A stretch of DNA of 64,000 bases, taken from positions 1 to 64,000 of the forward strand of contig UEGR01000008.1 in assembly GCA_900465685.1 (NCBI GenBank), read 5' to 3'. The translations under genes and the position numbers were made by a program. Below, piece by piece: positions 45,982 to 63,526 of this stretch. Position 1 is the stretch's first letter, and each line of letters begins with the position of its first letter. Below the pieces are notes generated by a model. That model was not told the origin of the DNA, made no database searches, and saw only the letters and a list, made by a program, of their open reading frames with translations. The DNA is from Hyphomicrobiales bacterium (GTDB lineage Bacteria; Pseudomonadota; Alphaproteobacteria; Rhizobiales; Rhizobiaceae).

Positions 45982-46209
45982 CCTTTTGGCATTTCGTCTA
46001 GACAATAGACTGTGACAATTATTTCAGAGGTCAGGTTTGCCCGTTTTTGGGCGCATATCCCGGACCGAATCTGAAAAGGTGTTGTAGTTCCATGTAGTTA
46101 TCAGTCCTGTACCGGTTTTGCGAGCCCAGCGATCCATCCTCCCAAGCGAAGTTGGCGATCCGAAACCGGTGTGGGCACCTCACGAAACATTGATGAAAGC
46201 GCGTCTCCC

Positions 46210-47421
46210 ATGGCTTCGAGTCTTGTGCGCAATGCGATTGTTCTCGGTCTTCTGTCCGCAGTTGGCCCCTTCGCGATCGACATGTATCTGCCTGCCTTGC
46301 CGACCATTGCTGCCGATCTCCATGCGGAGACCGGTGCTGTACAGATGAGTCTGCTTGCCTTTTTTATTGCTTTGGCGATTGCCCAGCTTTTCTGCGGTCC
46401 TTTGTCGGACATGGTCGGGCGCAAAATCCCGCTTTACGGCGGCCTGATTCTCTTCGCTATTGGCAGTGTTGGTTCTGCGCTGGCGACCAATATCGATGTG
46501 CTGGTGCTGTTCCGCTTCCTGCAAGGGCTTGGTGCGGCGGCAGGCATGGTGATTCCACGCGCCGTGGTGCGTGATTTGCACACTGGCGTCGAAGCCGCGC
46601 GGCTCATGTCGCTCCTGATGCTGGTCTTCTCGATTTCGCCGATTCTGGCACCGCTTACAGGCTCGGTCATCATCAGCTTCTTTGGATGGCGTGGTGTGTT
46701 CTGGGCCGTTCTGGTCGCTGCGCTTATCGGCATCGTGCTGCTTGCCACCGCCCAGCAGGAAACGCGAACGCGTGAAGCGCGGCTTGAAAGCAGTATCGGC
46801 AGCGCTCTGCGTGGCTATGGCCGCTTGCTCAAGGACCGCTATTTCCTTGGACTGGTTTTCGTCGGCGGCTTCGGCATCGCGTCGTTCTTCGTCTATCTGG
46901 CCAATTCGTCCTTCGTGCTGATTGACCATTACGGCTTGACCCCGAACCAGTATGCGCTGGCTTTCTCGGCCAATGCGGTGTCGTTCTTCGGCGTTTCGCA
47001 GCTGAATGGCTTGCTTGGCGCTCGCTTCGGCCTGCGCCGTGTGATGCGCGTTGCCGTATCCGGTTTCGCAGCCGCCATGCTTGCCATGTTCGCAGCCGTG
47101 CTGATGGGGCACCAGTCGCTGTGGCTGATCGCAGCCTTCCTGTTCGTCGGCTATGGCTTCCTTGGACTGGTGATTCCGACCACGGCGGTTCTGGCGCTGG
47201 AAGATTACGGCGCGATTGCCGGTACCGCTTCAGCGCTGATGGGCACGCTGCATTTCGTGATTGGCGGTCTGGCAATCGGCATAACGGGCTCGTTCTTCGA
47301 TGGAACGGCTGTGCCTATGGTCGGCGGTATCGCTGGCTGTGCTCTGACCGCATTCGTGTTGACGCAGATCGTCCTCTCTCGCAAGGCGAGTGACGTCGAA
47401 ACAGAAGCGGCAGCAGCCTGA
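46210..47421 (+). CDS. Bcr/CflA family multidrug efflux MFS transporter
   Basis: This is a drug:proton antiporter of the 12-helix major facilitator superfamily. The 403-residue product opens with the family signature VGPFAIDMYLPALPTIAADL near 18-37, followed by the loop 2-3 motif GPLSDMVGRKIPLYGG near 65-80 and the antiporter motif C region near 145. About twelve hydrophobic segments are visible. The GTG at 46171 is an alternative start adding 13 residues; neither start has a strong Shine-Dalgarno. It is divergent from the TetR gene, which likely controls it. Substrates are unknown. Confidence 0.9.
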   Translation: MASSLVRNAIVLGLLSAVGPFAIDMYLPALPTIAADLHAETGAVQMSLLAFFIALAIAQLFCGPLSDMVGRKIPLYGGLILFAIGSVGSALATNIDVLVLFRFLQGLGAAAGMVIPRAVVRDLHTGVEAARLMSLLMLVFSISPILAPLTGSVIISFFGWRGVFWAVLVAALIGIVLLATAQQETRTREARLESSIGSALRGYGRLLKDRYFLGLVFVGGFGIASFFVYLANSSFVLIDHYGLTPNQYALAFSANAVSFFGVSQLNGLLGARFGLRRVMRVAVSGFAAAMLAMFAAVLMGHQSLWLIAAFLFVGYGFLGLVIPTTAVLALEDYGAIAGTASALMGTLHFVIGGLAIGITGSFFDGTAVPMVGGIAGCALTAFVLTQIVLSRKASDVETEAAAA

Positions 47422-47439: not shown

Positions 47440-47783
47440 TGTAAGGGAAAGTGGAGGCTTCTGTTGCCAGGTGCCTCCGAACCCCGCCTTAAGGTGCTAA
47501 CCCTAAGGGCTTTAGAGTGGGTTTCCCGCACCGCCATTAGGCAGCGAGAGCATAACCCTGAGCTTTGTTGTCATTTGCAACTACTCAATTGACCCGATAA
47601 CGGTGGTATCATGCCGAGTAAAAGAGCGATCTTTACACCCTTGTCGATCCTATTTCGCCCCCGCCACAGCACAGACTAACGATACAGCCTGTGTTCTGGT
47701 GGAGGCGCCGGGTACCGCCCCCGGGTCCAATGGGTTTATTACACCGTCCGTTTATCACCATAGCTGGCTTGCGCCAGCGAGAC
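47440..47783 (-). ncRNA. ssrA: tmRNA, circularly permuted two-piece form
   Basis: tmRNA rescues stalled ribosomes and tags the product for proteolysis. On the minus strand the acceptor piece comes first, with a GNRA-loop hairpin GCTGGC-GCAA-GCCAGC at 47763-47778 and 3' end CGCCTCCACCA ending at 47697. After about 34 nt of intervening sequence the coding piece begins GGGGGCG at 47662. The two ends pair as a 7-bp acceptor stem with a G3-U70 wobble, the alanine identity element. After the resume context TAGTTGCA the tag reads ANDNKAQGYALAA (47578 down to 47540, TAA at 47539-47537). The 3' end near 47445 is an estimate: a GGAGGC/GCCTCC hairpin lies at 47453-47478. Confidence 0.93.
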
Positions 47784-48423
47784 GTATATAGGCGTGGTCG
47801 ATCCATATTGGAAGAGGGGCGGTTACATTTGTCAGGGGCAAATCTGCTCCCGAATCTTCTGAAGCCCGAATAAAGCGGCCCTTTCGTTGCCGTCGGAAAG
47901 ATGAGATGTTGATCGTCTCATTTTCCTTAAGCGCGCCCGCGCTCCACGGCCCCAATCCCTCGATGCTTGCCTTCACACTGGGCATGACACAGGAAATATC
48001 CGCATCGCTACAGTCCTTCGGAGCTGTCGCCTTGAGTATAGCCCGCAATATTTTCTGCAAGACATCAACGGATGCCGGAAGTGCTCGGGTAGAATGAGGG
48101 AAAATTGCAGCGCCGTGAGAATTTACAAAGGTCCAAACATAATAAAACGCGTTGTGAAACTGTAAGTAAATTTAAAAAATTAATCAGAATGACGCTATTC
48201 ATTATGAATAAGTGTTGCGTGGAGAATATGTGAGATCGTATTTTGTTCTTTGCAGGACAAAAGATCATTGTTGTGTGTTGCTTCCCTAAAATGTCGTTGA
48301 CAGCTTGCTCGCACTGGTCAATCTTGGCTGCATATATATTGGAAAGGCTGGGGTTTTCTTCCGGTCGATCGGGATTTGCAGTTGATATTGGGCGGTGTGC
48401 CCATACTGAAGGAGAGCCGATAT
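47784..48423. other. Long non-coding region between ssrA and the DUF2853 gene (640 nt)
   Basis: On the minus strand the ssrA promoter should lie at its left end: TATATA at 47785-47790 fits a -10 box, with a weak TTCCAA at 47808-47813. The part from about 48100 to 48260 is AT-rich and holds a palindrome, TATTCAT-T-ATGAATA, at 48196-48210. A minus-strand frame of 101 codons (48060-47755, TTG start) runs into ssrA and has no Shine-Dalgarno, so I do not call it. Confidence 0.5.
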
Positions 48424-58913: not shown

Positions 58914-60788
58914 TCAGCCCTCAAAATCCTTACGGAAATTGCGCACCAGATCGCCAAGCTTTTTCATGCTTTGGGCTGTCTCGCTGTTATGAGACACGAC
59001 TGGCGCTGGTCGCTCCGGTGCAAGTGCTGCCGCCGTGACGGTTTCCAGCCTGCTGATTGTCGAAGGCTTCTCCAATAGATCGCTGTCTTCGGACGGTTTT
59101 TCAGGAACGCCGGTTTGCGCATTATTTTCAAAGGAGCGAAGCCGATCCACGATGCGGTCCAGCGCGATCTTGTCGTCGACCTGCCAGGATGCGGTGGGGT
59201 TTTCGGCTTTGCGGCGTCCCGGCAATTGATGCGGTGGGACTGTTTCGAAGGTCAGTCGCATCGGCGTTGAGAACGCTTCGCCAAAGGCGATGGCTTCACG
59301 GTTGGCAATTGACGAGAGAAATCCTGCCATACTGCGGGCGCCGCCGCGCAATGCGCCCTTGATGATTTCCTGATCGCGCTCATTGCCGAGGCGCATCGCG
59401 AAGATGGAGTTGCACTGCGAGAGAATGGTGGCGTCCAGCTCGCCGGGGCGCTGGCTGATCACGCCGAGATAGGAGCCATATTTGCGCCCTTCCTTGGCGA
59501 TGCGGGCAATGGCCTGTCGTGTCGGCCAGAAACCGGCATCCTTGTCGGCGGGAATATAACGGTGCGCTTCCTCGCAGATGACAAGGGTTTGCAGGCTGCC
59601 TTCGCTCGACATGGCAATGTCGAAGGAGAGGCGGCACAGAACCGACGCAACCGCATTGACCACCTCGGATGGCAGGCCTGCGAGCTGGAAGGTGCAAATC
59701 GGCTTGCCATTGTGCGGAATGCGGAAAATGCGGGCGATGGCCTGACGCATGGTTTCCGGGCCGCCGGTAACAGCAAACATGAAGCGAAAGCGCGGATCGC
59801 TGGCGATGGATTCCAGCCGCGCTTTCAGGTTGCGCAGATAGGGGCGCTCGGCCTTGCTGTCGAGAAGGCCGATCCTGTCTTCGATCAGGGTCAGGAGATC
59901 GCGCAGGCGATAGGCAATCGGCGTATCGACGCTGACCGTTCTGTCCGATAATTTGCGCCGCAAGGTCTGGCGGCCGCCGGTCTCGCTGTCATTGGTCTTT
60001 TCGCGGGCAAGCTGCACAAGGTCGCGCAATATGTCGTATTCGGTTGGCTCGGGGGGGCGACCACGAAAGATGACATCCGCAAACTCGTCCAACCGCAACA
60101 TCCAGAACGGCAATTCGATATTGGTCTGGTCCACCGCGATGGCAAGATCCGGAAATGCGCCAGCAAATTCATTGTGCGGATCGAGGATGAGGATGCGCAG
60201 ATCGGGCCGCTGCAAGACGATGCGGCGCAGCAGCAGCATGACGGCGCTGGATTTGCCCACGCCCGTGGTGCCGACAACGGCAAAATGGCGCGAGATGAGG
60301 TCTTCCACCGAAACATAGGCGGGAACGGAGGTATCCTGCGTCAGCGCGCCGATGGGGACGCTTGTCTGCCCCATCTGGGCATAGACAGCAGACAGGTCGG
60401 TGGCGCGGATGCGGTGGGCGATGGCGCCGGGATAAGGATATCTGGAAATACCGCCGCTAAACGACATAGCGCCATCCGGTTCGCCGCGGACTTCTCCGAG
60501 AAATTCGACATGGACGTGGACGATGTTGTCGCCGCCGCGTGCCCAGGCATTATCGGGCACGGTGACATTATGGACGAGGCCGACCAGACGGTTGCCGCCG
60601 GACTGTATCGAGATGAGCTGGCCTACAGTCCAGTAGTCATCGGAAGCCGTGGAAGAGGGGCCGGACAGAGCCGCGATGATCGCGCGCTCGCCGTCGCACT
60701 GGATGACATGGCCTTCCGTGCGGTTGCGCTGTACAAAGCCGCGGTCTTTCATCTCGGCATTGCCGTCAATATCCCCGCCCATGTTCAT
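58914..60788 (-). CDS. HerA-like hexameric ATPase (DUF87)
   Basis: The product (624 residues from ATG 60788) has an N-terminal beta-barrel (HAS-barrel) region and a RecA-like motor. Walker A GTTGVGKSSA lies near 173-182, LRILILDPHNEFAGAFPD near 201-218 as Walker B, and the VICEEAHRYIPADKD block near 416-430. The C-terminal tail is Pro/Glu-rich. HerA proteins move DNA at ends or forks, but the usual partner nuclease NurA is not nearby. A TTG at 60827 would add 13 residues; ATG 60782 is another option. The start diverges from the ilvB leader. Confidence 0.82.
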   Translation of the reverse strand: MNMGGDIDGNAEMKDRGFVQRNRTEGHVIQCDGERAIIAALSGPSSTASDDYWTVGQLISIQSGGNRLVGLVHNVTVPDNAWARGGDNIVHVHVEFLGEVRGEPDGAMSFSGGISRYPYPGAIAHRIRATDLSAVYAQMGQTSVPIGALTQDTSVPAYVSVEDLISRHFAVVGTTGVGKSSAVMLLLRRIVLQRPDLRILILDPHNEFAGAFPDLAIAVDQTNIELPFWMLRLDEFADVIFRGRPPEPTEYDILRDLVQLAREKTNDSETGGRQTLRRKLSDRTVSVDTPIAYRLRDLLTLIEDRIGLLDSKAERPYLRNLKARLESIASDPRFRFMFAVTGGPETMRQAIARIFRIPHNGKPICTFQLAGLPSEVVNAVASVLCRLSFDIAMSSEGSLQTLVICEEAHRYIPADKDAGFWPTRQAIARIAKEGRKYGSYLGVISQRPGELDATILSQCNSIFAMRLGNERDQEIIKGALRGGARSMAGFLSSIANREAIAFGEAFSTPMRLTFETVPPHQLPGRRKAENPTASWQVDDKIALDRIVDRLRSFENNAQTGVPEKPSEDSDLLEKPSTISRLETVTAAALAPERPAPVVSHNSETAQSMKKLGDLVRNFRKDFEG

Positions 60789-60901: not shown

Positions 60902-60930
60902 TTGACGGCTCGTTTTCAGGCGATTAGTGT
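60902..60930 (+). promoter_or_regulatory. Candidate promoter of the ilvBH operon
   Basis: TTGACG at 60902-60907 is a near-perfect -35 box. With a 17-nt spacer the -10 would be TAGTGT at 60925-60930, a weak match. The predicted start point, about 60937, lies 2 nt before the leader-peptide ATG. Confidence 0.45.
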
Positions 60931-60938
60931 CCCGCCCC

Positions 60939-60992
60939 ATGAACACGTTTATTATTCTTGTGGTACGGGCGCGCATGGGCAGGATGGTGTAA
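60939..60992 (+). CDS. ilvL: Branched-chain amino-acid leader peptide of ilvBH
   Basis: The 17-residue peptide MNTFIILVVRARMGRMV contains five consecutive branched-chain residues (Ile-Ile-Leu-Val-Val) and is followed by a 10-bp hairpin and an attenuator. This is the layout of ilv attenuation leaders. No Shine-Dalgarno precedes the ATG (the upstream bases are GTCCCGCCCC), and the predicted transcript would start about 2 nt earlier, so it may be translated leaderless. The Ile codons are ATT, the Leu CTT and the Val GTG and GTA. Confidence 0.84.
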   Translation: MNTFIILVVRARMGRMV

Positions 60993-61018
60993 CCATCCGG
61001 CGAAAGCTCCCATGCGCG
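60970..61018 (+). promoter_or_regulatory. Ten-bp pause/anti-antiterminator hairpin in the ilv leader
   Basis: CGCGCATGGG (60970-60979, inside the leader peptide) pairs perfectly with CCCATGCGCG (61009-61018). A smaller GGATGG/CCATCC stem lies inside. A ribosome stalled at the Ile-Val codons would cover the left arm and free the right arm region. Confidence 0.8.
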
Positions 61019-61044
61019 AAAGACAGGCTCCCTCGGGGGCCTTT
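61003..61044 (+). promoter_or_regulatory. Predicted antiterminator pairing
   Basis: AAAGCTCCC (61003-61011) can pair with the terminator's right arm and first T residues (GGGGG then CTTT, 61035-61044), leaving one bulged C. This excludes both the 10-bp hairpin and the terminator. Confidence 0.55.
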
Positions 61045-61047
61045 TTT
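61026..61047 (+). terminator. Attenuator of ilvBH
   Basis: GGCTCC and GGGGCC (one G-T pair) form a 6-bp stem with loop CTCG, followed by six T, 67 nt before the ilvB start. Its position between a leader peptide and the structural gene identifies it as an attenuator rather than an end-of-operon terminator. Confidence 0.8.
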
Positions 61048-61113
61048 ATTATCCAAAAAAGCCCGATGCGGCTAAATCTAACACCGAAATATCGACTAGA
61101 CGGGAAGAGAACG

Positions 61114-62937
61114 ATGACTGCAGGTAAACAAGAGGCGGAAGCAACCGCCGCAGGATCACAGGAAACAAGCCATCCGCGCGAGATGACCGGCGCGGAAATG
61201 GTTATCCAGGCCATGATTGATCAGGGCGTGGAAAGCATTTTCGGCTATCCGGGCGGCGCAGTGCTTCCGATCTATGACGAACTGTTCCAGCAGGACAAAA
61301 TTCAGCACATTCTCGTGCGTCACGAGCAGGGCGCAGGCCATGCCGCCGAAGGCTATGCCCGCTCCACGGGCAAGGTTGGTGTGTTGCTGGTGACCTCCGG
61401 TCCCGGCGCAACCAATGCGGTTACGCCGCTTCAGGATGCGCTGATGGATTCCATCCCGCTCGTCTGCATTTCCGGTCAGGTCCCAACCTCCTTGATTGGC
61501 TCCGATGCTTTTCAGGAAGCCGATACCGTTGGCATCACGCGTCCCTGCACCAAGCACAACTGGCTGGTGAAGGACGTCAACGACCTGTCGCGCGTTCTGC
61601 ATGAAGCCTTCCATGTCGCATCCACGGGTCGTCCCGGCCCGGTTCTGGTCGATATTCCGAAGGACATCCAGTTTGCAAAGGGCATCTATACGCCGCCGCA
61701 GACCACGCCGCGTACCACGTACCGTCCGGTTCTCGACGGCAATGCGCAGGCGATTGCCGACGCTGTTCGTCTGCTCGCCACGGCGAAGAAGCCCGTCATC
61801 TATTCCGGCGGTGGCGTGATCAATTCCGGCCCGGCAGCTTCCCGTCTGCTGCGCGAGCTGGTTGAACTCGGCAATTTCCCGATCACCTCTACCCTGATGG
61901 GCCTCGGCGCTTATCCGGCTTCCGGCAAGAATTGGCTCGGCATGCTGGGCATGCACGGCACCTACGAAGCCAATATGACCATGCATGATTGCGACGTCAT
62001 GCTGTGCGTCGGCGCGCGCTTCGATGACCGTATTACTGGCCGCCTCAATGCCTTCTCGCCGAATTCGAAGAAGATTCACATCGATATTGATCCGTCGTCG
62101 ATCAACAAGAATGTCCGCGTGGATGTGCCGATTATCGGCGATGTTGCGCATGTTTTGGAAGATATCGTTCGCCAGTTCCGCGCTTCCGACAAAAAGCCGG
62201 AAAAGAAGACCATCGCGGCCTGGTGGGAGCAGATTGACCGTTGGCGCGCCCGCAATTCGCTGGCCTATACGCCGAACAAAGACGTCATCATGCCGCAATA
62301 TGCTATTGAGCGGCTGTATGAACTGACCAAGGATCGCAAGACCTACATCACCACGGAAGTTGGTCAGCACCAGATGTGGGCTGCGCAGTTCTACGGTTTT
62401 GAAGAACCGAACCGCTGGCTGACCTCGGGCGGTCTGGGCACTATGGGTTATGGCCTGCCTGCCGCGCTCGGTGTGCAGATCGCACATCCGGATGCGCTGG
62501 TTATCGACATTGCTGGTGATGCATCGATCCAGATGTGCATTCAGGAAATGTCGGCGGCTATCCAGCATAATGCGCCGATCAAGATATTCATCCTGAACAA
62601 CCAGTATATGGGCATGGTCCGCCAGTGGCAGCAATTGCTGCATGGCAATCGTCTGTCGCATTCCTATACGGAAGCGATGCCGGATTTCGTCAAACTGGCG
62701 GAAGCCTATGGCGCGCATGGCATCCGTTGCGAAAAGCCGGGCGATCTGGATAGCGCCATTCAGGAAATGATCGACATCGACAAGCCGGTCATCTTCGACT
62801 GCCGCGTTGCCAATCTGGCGAACTGTTTCCCGATGATCCCGTCCGGCAAGGCGCATAACGAAATGCTGTTGCCTGACGAAGCTACGGACGAAGCCGTTGC
62901 CAATGCCATCGACGCCAAGGGCCGCGCGCTCGTCTGA
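61114..62937 (+). CDS. ilvB: Acetolactate synthase large subunit
   Basis: This is the catalytic subunit for the first common step of valine, leucine and isoleucine synthesis; it uses thiamine diphosphate and FAD. The 607-residue protein has the ThDP motif VESIFGYPGGAVLPIYDEL near 39-57, the catalytic Glu in LVRHEQGAGHAAEG near 69-82, and the metal/ThDP motif GDASIQMCIQEMSA near 469-482 with NNQYMGMVRQWQ near 496. ATG 61114 is preceded by GGGAAGAGA. The start codon follows the attenuator. It is in an operon with ilvH. Confidence 0.96.
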   Translation: MTAGKQEAEATAAGSQETSHPREMTGAEMVIQAMIDQGVESIFGYPGGAVLPIYDELFQQDKIQHILVRHEQGAGHAAEGYARSTGKVGVLLVTSGPGATNAVTPLQDALMDSIPLVCISGQVPTSLIGSDAFQEADTVGITRPCTKHNWLVKDVNDLSRVLHEAFHVASTGRPGPVLVDIPKDIQFAKGIYTPPQTTPRTTYRPVLDGNAQAIADAVRLLATAKKPVIYSGGGVINSGPAASRLLRELVELGNFPITSTLMGLGAYPASGKNWLGMLGMHGTYEANMTMHDCDVMLCVGARFDDRITGRLNAFSPNSKKIHIDIDPSSINKNVRVDVPIIGDVAHVLEDIVRQFRASDKKPEKKTIAAWWEQIDRWRARNSLAYTPNKDVIMPQYAIERLYELTKDRKTYITTEVGQHQMWAAQFYGFEEPNRWLTSGGLGTMGYGLPAALGVQIAHPDALVIDIAGDASIQMCIQEMSAAIQHNAPIKIFILNNQYMGMVRQWQQLLHGNRLSHSYTEAMPDFVKLAEAYGAHGIRCEKPGDLDSAIQEMIDIDKPVIFDCRVANLANCFPMIPSGKAHNEMLLPDEATDEAVANAIDAKGRALV

Positions 62938-62953
62938 TCCGGAGGATTTAATT

Positions 62954-63526
62954 ATGAATGCACAGAACCTAGCTTCCGGATCGGCTTACTTCATCGCTGC
63001 CGAAACCCAGACCCCGGAAACCCACACGCTTGCGGTCCTCGTCGATAACGAGCCGGGTGTTCTTGCCCGTGTGATCGGACTTTTCTCCGGTCGCGGTTAC
63101 AACATCGAAAGCCTGACGGTTTCGGAAACCGAGCACGAGAAGCATCTGTCGCGCATCACCATCGTGACGCGTGGCACGCCGCATGTGCTTGACCAGATCC
63201 GTCACCAGCTGGCGCGCATCGTTCCGGTGCACCGCGTGGTGGATCTGAGCCATCGTGCGAGCGAACTTGGGCATGATCGTCCGATCGAGCGCGAGCTGGC
63301 GCTGGTTAAGGTGGCTGGCAAGGGTGAAGCCCGCGCCGAAACTCTGCGTCTTGCCGATGCGTTCAAGGCCAAGGTGGTCGACGCGACGACGGATCACTTC
63401 ATTCTGGAGATCACCGGCAAAACCGCCAAGATCGACCAGTTCATCTCGATCATGAAGCCGCTCGGCCTTGTCGAAATCTGCCGCACTGGCGTGGCGGCAA
63501 TGAACCGCGGTCCTGAAGGCATGTAA
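62954..63526 (+). CDS. ilvH: Acetolactate synthase small (regulatory) subunit
   Basis: The 190-residue regulatory subunit mediates feedback inhibition by valine. An ACT domain spans about 21-95 (LAVLVDNEPGVLARVIGLFS near 25, GYNIESLTV near 47), and a C-terminal ACT-like domain follows (VKVAGKGEARAETLRL near 118). ATG 62954 has GGAGGA at 62941-62946, a strong Shine-Dalgarno. It lies 16 nt after ilvB. A terminator follows. Confidence 0.95.
   Translation: MNAQNLASGSAYFIAAETQTPETHTLAVLVDNEPGVLARVIGLFSGRGYNIESLTVSETEHEKHLSRITIVTRGTPHVLDQIRHQLARIVPVHRVVDLSHRASELGHDRPIERELALVKVAGKGEARAETLRLADAFKAKVVDATTDHFILEITGKTAKIDQFISIMKPLGLVEICRTGVAAMNRGPEGM

What the first reader, a model, noticed from the sequence alone, without database searches (positions are those of the whole stretch)
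60939..61047. Leader peptide with Ile-Ile-Leu-Val-Val and an attenuator ahead of ilvBH
Seen: a 17-codon frame with five branched-chain codons in a row, a perfect 10-bp hairpin whose left arm overlaps the frame, an alternative pairing (61003-61011 with 61035-61044) and a T-tailed terminator. Known: proteobacterial ilv operons use ribosome-stalling attenuation. Inferred: stalling at the Ile-Val codons frees the right arm and prevents termination, so starvation for any of the three amino acids raises ilvBH. Such small frames are usually not annotated.
Basis: partly seen in the sequence, partly recalled or inferred. Interest (0 to 1): 0.75.

Follow-up and report, generated by a model that had tools for sequence, protein, structure and literature searches.

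The report
Amino-acid-sensing leader before ilvBH genes
A short RNA ahead of the ilvBH genes, carrying a tiny reading frame full of isoleucine, leucine and valine codons and ending in a stop signal for transcription, is an ordinary member of a known kind of amino-acid switch, but in related soil bacteria the same element also sits, shifted towards valine codons, in front of a membrane transporter gene.

Summary
In detail: a 17-codon frame with Ile-Ile-Leu-Val-Val, a 10-bp hairpin and a T-tailed terminator lie at 60939-61047, ahead of ilvB and ilvH. The element matches Rfam RF02502 (Atu_C8, filed as an sRNA) at 116.8 bits. In relatives it is an ilvB leader: 155 of 157 matches examined precede ilvB on the same strand. 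Control residues, hairpins and terminator are conserved, with covariation. Alphaproteobacterial ilvB leader attenuation is already in print (passages), so the window feature is ordinary.

(3) A valine-shifted copy precedes a Bcr/CflA-type MFS transporter gene in 71 of 80 related loci, 8 of which supplied the query. I saw no report of this in my ten literature searches.

The parts
60902..60907 (+). -35 box TTGACG
   Evidence: TTGAC lies 35-38 nt before the ATG in 91 of 93 ilvB leaders of the window's family
60922..60929 (+). -10-like region GATTAGTG, placing the transcription start at or next to the A of the leader ATG (inferred)
   Evidence: similar position in relatives by eye; no mapped 5' end available here
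60939..60992 (+). leader peptide frame MNTFIILVVRARMGRMV plus stop; inferred leaderless
   Evidence: no Shine-Dalgarno core in 92 of 93 family ilvB leaders
60951..60965 (+). control codons Ile-Ile-Leu-Val-Val
   Evidence: conserved run
60970..61018 (+). P1 (60970-60979 with 61009-61018) enclosing P2 and P3
60982..60998 (+). P2 hairpin, stop codon in and beside its loop
   Evidence: 5 of 7 pairs with changes on both sides in A1
60999..61008 (+). P3 small hairpin, weakly supported
   Evidence: 74.4% of cells paired in A1
61025..61047 (+). intrinsic terminator: 7-bp hairpin and T run
60938..61058 (+). match to Rfam RF02502 Atu_C8, 116.8 bits
   Evidence: own model R1 60936-61057, 123.7 bits, built with this sequence among others
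61114..62937 (+). ilvB, acetolactate synthase large subunit
62954..63526 (+). ilvH, acetolactate synthase small subunit

Best explanation
A cis-acting, ribosome-dependent transcription attenuator of ilvBH. Transcription starts at or next to the leader ATG (inferred from promoter spacing), so ribosomes begin on a leaderless frame. With charged tRNA-Ile, -Leu and -Val plentiful, the peptide is finished, P1/P2 fold behind the ribosome, and the terminator stops RNA polymerase, leaving a small RNA of about 110 nt (Rfam's Atu_C8). When one of these tRNAs is short, the ribosome stalls at I-I-L-V-V, covers the left part of P1, and transcription reads into ilvBH. Shown here: the frame, conserved control residues, conserved covarying P1, P2 and terminator, and near-constant linkage to ilvB. 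Inferred: stalling, readthrough and the start site. Not found: the RNA pairing that would cancel the terminator.
For: 155 of 157 matches lie upstream of ilvB, same strand. 381 of 394 genomes of the window's family (374 above Rfam's cut-off) and 131 of 249 of its order (38 above the cut-off) have a match at E up to 0.001; 0 of 14 control genomes do. All 93 family ilvB leaders have an I/L/V run of 3 or more, under a picking rule that prefers such runs. A model built from family leaders scored the element in all 99 non-family loci tested, which had been chosen by their Rfam match. On that alignment 24 of 27 pairs have both-side changes, 412 cells against 108 in shuffles. Caulobacter ilvIH attenuation through a leader CDS is described in print (passages of PMC4117421).
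Against: No antiterminator helix supported in all families: covariation shows none, and swapped-partner tests give only small effects, while the terminator, P1 and P2 controls are positive. Folding with the 5' part masked as if by a stalled ribosome leaves the terminator intact in all 6 sequences tried, one of them an MFS leader. 118 of 249 order genomes had no match (stricter filters); I did not inspect their ilvB leaders. No expression data.
Confidence: 0.85

Rival explanations
1. The switch: a stalled ribosome frees the right arm of P1, whose flank pairs with the terminator's 3' arm and stops termination.
For: The helix can be drawn in the window. In the window's family this region pairs with arm 4 better than swapped controls (-9.10 vs -8.65 kcal/mol, P 1e-4), as large an effect as the P1 control there.
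Against: No pairing above shuffles and 1 compensatory cell in 54 family leaders; no such effect in other families; several other regions give similar small effects with arm 4, so the signal is not specific; it needs the last-made arm, which the local hairpin would take first (inference). Odds raised from 0.2 to 0.25 on rechecking the size of the P1 control.
Confidence: 0.25
2. A dual-function RNA: besides attenuating ilvB in cis, the short RNA or its peptide acts in trans, as rnTrpL/peTrpL does in S. meliloti.
For: Rfam files it as an sRNA; rnTrpL is likewise a leaderless attenuator-derived sRNA with trans functions (passages of PMC7298713, PMC10117765).
Against: Tied to ilvB in 155 of 157 cases; every resolved second copy has a gene behind it; conservation is explained by the cis function.
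Confidence: 0.25
3. A constitutive small transcript: the terminator works regardless of translation, and the frame is an untuned uORF.
For: No antiterminator could be established.
Against: I/L/V residues kept across the order with synonymous change; the same run travels with a second gene and shifts towards valine there.
Confidence: 0.07

Closest known systems
Alphaproteobacterial ilvB leader attenuator (Vitreschak 2004, not held; cited as previously described in PMC1273637, passage; Caulobacter ilvIH/ilvBN leader in PMC4117421, passages)
   Same: Gene, leader peptide, Ile/Val control codons, terminator, class of organism.
   Different: The leaderless start in the window's family and the lack of a supported antiterminator are not in the passages I read.
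Rfam RF02502 Atu_C8
   Same: Same RNA, matched over model positions 1-122 of 122 at 116.8 bits.
   Different: Filed as an sRNA gene; here it is a cis leader of ilvB in 155 of 157 cases.
trpL / rnTrpL attenuator of S. meliloti (PMC7298713, PMC10117765; passages)
   Same: Leaderless leader frame, terminated small RNA, product amino-acid codons.
   Different: Ile/Leu/Val in place of Trp; trans action not shown.
E. coli ilvBN and ilvGMEDA leader attenuators (recalled)
   Same: Branched-chain codons and terminator before acetolactate synthase genes.
   Different: The antiterminator pairing recalled there has no counterpart established here.

Membership tests
Ribosome-mediated transcription attenuator of an amino-acid operon | short leader frame with several codons for the pathway's products | tested here: met
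   frame and I/L/V run conserved; translation itself not tested
Ribosome-mediated transcription attenuator of an amino-acid operon | intrinsic terminator between leader frame and first gene | tested here: met
   terminator pairs in 99.7% (A1) and 98.6% (A3) of cells, covarying
Ribosome-mediated transcription attenuator of an amino-acid operon | mutually exclusive antiterminator pairing | tested here: inconclusive
   no covarying alternative helix; a small native-over-swapped effect in the window's family only; a short invariant pairing cannot be excluded
Ribosome-mediated transcription attenuator of an amino-acid operon | readthrough rises on starvation | not testable with these tools
   no expression data
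Rfam RF02502 Atu_C8 | match above gathering score 50 | tested here: met
   116.8 bits, model 1-122 of 122
rnTrpL-type leaderless attenuator RNA | transcript begins at the leader AUG | tested here: inconclusive
   promoter spacing and lack of a Shine-Dalgarno fit; start site not mapped
Trans-acting sRNA | regulates targets elsewhere | not testable with these tools
   no target data

The most novel reading that the evidence does not exclude
Atu_C8 is one branched-chain attenuator module with two kinds of target. Ahead of ilvB it carries I/L-I/L-V-V; a copy has been captured by a Bcr/CflA-type MFS transporter gene and shifted towards valine, so that shortage of charged tRNA-Val would switch on a transporter in Rhizobium, Mesorhizobium, Phyllobacterium, Devosia, Pelagibacterium and Roseibium. 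The module may also work without a conserved antiterminator helix.
Probability: 0.6. Interest if true: 0.6.

Novelty: new member of a known kind. Interest (0 to 1): 0.42.

Why it matters
For the window itself: an unannotated control element of branched-chain synthesis is placed, and an Rfam family labelled sRNA is explained as an ilvB leader. Beyond it: the RNA leader suggests a role for an uncharacterised transporter group. Its members sit under a branched-chain attenuator, while two more distant relatives sit under a TPP riboswitch, as if the leader marked the substrate class (inference). The lack of an established antiterminator makes the ilvB leader of rhizobia a test case for how a stalled ribosome can cancel a terminator.

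Tried and rejected
None gave an alternative helix supported in all families. Results that lean the other way: (36 region tests, no correction for their number or for kinship) several regions pair with arm 4 slightly better than swapped (nt 19-36 in both sets, by 0.18 kcal/mol; nt 29-44 and 61-76 in the window's family, by 0.12 and 0.45), and one isolated column pair (27 with 185, a terminator-arm column) scores 25.3. In the non-family set, pairing of terminator arm 3 with regions from nt 45 to 80 is weaker than swapped (P 0.004 to 7e-6), the reverse of what an antiterminator with that arm needs. In the window's family the test has little power because P1 hardly varies.

An idea that a second ribosome starting at the ATG in P1's right arm (61012-61014, in frame with ilvB in the window) translates through the terminator was dropped by reading A1 and L327: several relatives have a stop codon directly after ATG-CGC.

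An orphan-sRNA reading of the second copies was dropped once a gene was found behind each resolved one. Trees: the leader tree (100 rows, few columns, quick method) needs 2 changes for the MFS label, against 26.7 in shuffles; the MFS protein tree (80 rows) needs 5 changes for attenuator presence, against 6.8, and warns of long branches, so neither settles how often the leader was captured.

Literature: ten searches. No title or abstract start listed there reports a branched-chain attenuator before an MFS gene; lists were cut at their limits. ranks papers with both terms first and listed none holding 'Atu_C8'. In-text look-ups for ilv terms gave nothing in PMC4201532, PMC2245857 and PMC3927594 and nothing on ilvB/ilvI in PMC3738593. 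Wilms 2012 (source of Atu_C8, recalled) and Vitreschak 2004 were not seen.

Full report
What is there. The window holds, at 60939-60992, a frame MNTFIILVVRARMGRMV, followed by a structured stretch and a T-tailed hairpin ending at 61047, 66 nt before ilvB. ilvB and ilvH are confirmed by NCBIfam. The RNA folds into P1 (10 bp) enclosing P2 and a small P3, then the terminator (-47.5 kcal/mol, z -3.64). Rfam matches it over the whole model as RF02502 Atu_C8, "Rhizobiales sRNA".

Conservation. At E up to 0.001 the family was found in 31 of 40 relatives (26 above Rfam's cut-off), 131 of 249 genomes of the order (38 above it) and 381 of 394 genomes of the family (374 above it); 0 of 14 control genomes in each search. 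Of the 13 family genomes without a match, 11 are of 2.4 Mb or less and the other two are 81% complete. I loaded 157 matches: 134 of the 135 places (that of G100 was left out) plus 23. 155 of 157 have ilvB downstream on the same strand; the other two precede a transporter gene. With 30 loci (of 32 matches) and 40 family leaders chosen one per genus from the listed part there are 227 leaders. A frame was picked in all but L065, with an I/L/V run of 2 in one (L084) and 3 or more in the rest. The picking rule prefers such runs; the first-start frames, picked without it, show the same core.

Codons. In 65 distinct family ilvB peptides the run reads I/L, then I/L (one V), then V in 59, then V in 65, while the codons vary, for example GTG 36 and GTA 29 at the last Val. 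This is what attenuation needs; that selection acts on the residue read is inferred.

Start of the frame. In 93 family ilvB leaders (5 second ilvB copies included), TTGAC lies 35-38 nt before the ATG in 91, and a Shine-Dalgarno core is seen in 1. In 121 non-family leaders a core is seen in 70 (no chance rate was computed). With a looser -35 motif, 92 of 93 family leaders have it near; of the 121 others, 81 have it 50-68 nt upstream (56 of them with a core), 18 near and 22 in neither place. So the family's leader looks leaderless, like trpL of S. meliloti (passages), while other families often place a Shine-Dalgarno and about 20-30 nt more between promoter and frame. The start site is inferred, not mapped.

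Structure. On 54 family leaders (A1, thinned at 90% identity, including 4 second ilvB copies), 94.8% of cells pair against 91.1% in shuffles, with both-side changes mainly in P2. On 102 rows aligned to the family model (A3: 99 of 121 non-family leaders, thinned at 85% identity, L002, and two spurious weak rows that I did not remove), 24 of 27 pairs have both-side changes, 412 cells against 108 in shuffles; the alignment was fitted to the structure, so this leans towards it. The 15 highest covarying column pairs all belong to P1, P2, P3 or the terminator; below them only scattered single pairs appear.

The missing step. Swapped-partner tests detect the terminator, P1 and P2, but no upstream partner of the terminator arms with a clear effect in both sets. 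The best hint is nt 61-76 with arm 4, in the window's family only: 0.45 kcal/mol, as large as the P1 control there (0.46), since P1 hardly varies in that family.

Second targets. Eighteen of the 394 family genomes had two matches (stricter filters, so a lower bound). Their second copies precede a Bcr/CflA-type MFS gene in 10, a second ilvB in 5 and an ABC transporter gene in 1; one is a contig-end fragment and one is weak, and these two were not resolved. By TIGR00710, one of two proteins tested is above the Bcr/CflA cut-off (217.1 against 200.9) and one below (163.4). The 11 MFS proteins (10 plus that of G150, another family) share 41-90% identity and lie in varied neighbourhoods. A scan of named genomes with their alignment kept the best 80 of 162 relatives. 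The model R1, built without any MFS leader, found the element just upstream in 71 of 80 (82-126 bits). Two more were weak (18.6 and 17.5 bits) yet carry valine-rich frames with a Shine-Dalgarno. The remaining 7 are L280 (cut at the contig end), three Variovorax, L314, L318 and L321; L318 shows a diverged leader-like stretch by eye. L314 and an Agrobacterium plasmid relative (L328) carry a TPP riboswitch instead.

Shift of codons. In 56 distinct MFS peptides the residue two before the run's end is Val in 46, against 1 of 65 in ilvB leaders; three or more Val in all but the last 8 residues occur in 51 of 56 against 14 of 65. The shift is not complete: 42 of 56 still hold an Ile and 36 of 56 a Leu in that part. 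The MFS leaders have the same promoter spacing (72 of 73 hold TTGAC in the 70 nt upstream, 67 of these at -36 or -37) and covarying stems (two weak rows included). Their nearest solved relatives by sequence profile are multidrug resistance protein D and MdfA, so export is the default guess; the substrate is unknown. In the window's own genome one RF02502 match was found, and its best MFS relative (window 46177-47298, 134.6 bits) has no such leader.

Known and new. Alphaproteobacterial ilvB leader peptides were in print by 2005 (passage of PMC1273637), and attenuation of Caulobacter ilvIH through a leader CDS is described in a ribosome-profiling study (passages of PMC4117421). The window element is therefore a member of a known kind. 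What I did not see in print, in the ten searches named under Tried and rejected, is the identity of Atu_C8 with that leader, its leaderless form, and its valine-shifted use before an MFS gene. The organism's name was not given; from recall of genome size and kin I take it to be of the Ochrobactrum/Brucella group, untested, and I propose no bench work in it.

Noticed in passing
L039, L059, L174-L176, L181-L183, L185-L187; L243-L322: Valine-shifted copies of the attenuator precede a Bcr/CflA-type MFS transporter gene in 71 of 80 related named loci, 8 of which supplied the query.
   Followed up: yes
L314:2297-2413, L328:469-585: Relatives of that MFS transporter sit under a TPP riboswitch instead, as if the RNA leader marked the substrate class.
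   Followed up: partly
L184 / L199 (G533:C10:1141-1260): A further copy of the attenuator precedes an ABC transporter gene (PF00664, PF00005).
   Followed up: partly
L058, L163, L166-L168, L102-L103: Second ilvB copies carry their own attenuators; G246 has two such units close together.
   Followed up: partly
window 61012-61014: An ATG in P1's right arm, in frame with ilvB in the window and invariant in A1, but followed by stop codons in several relatives.
   Followed up: partly
window 47450-47817: tmRNA on the minus strand (RF01849, 313.6 bits), also matched by the permuted tmRNA family.
   Followed up: no
window 58914-60785: HerA-like ATPase gene on the minus strand, divergent from ilvB (below curated cut-offs); a DUF87 gene holds the same place in the S. 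meliloti record (L327).
   Followed up: no
window 60938-61058: The matching Rfam family RF02502 is typed as an sRNA gene, whereas the matches examined are almost all ilvB leaders in cis.
   Followed up: yes
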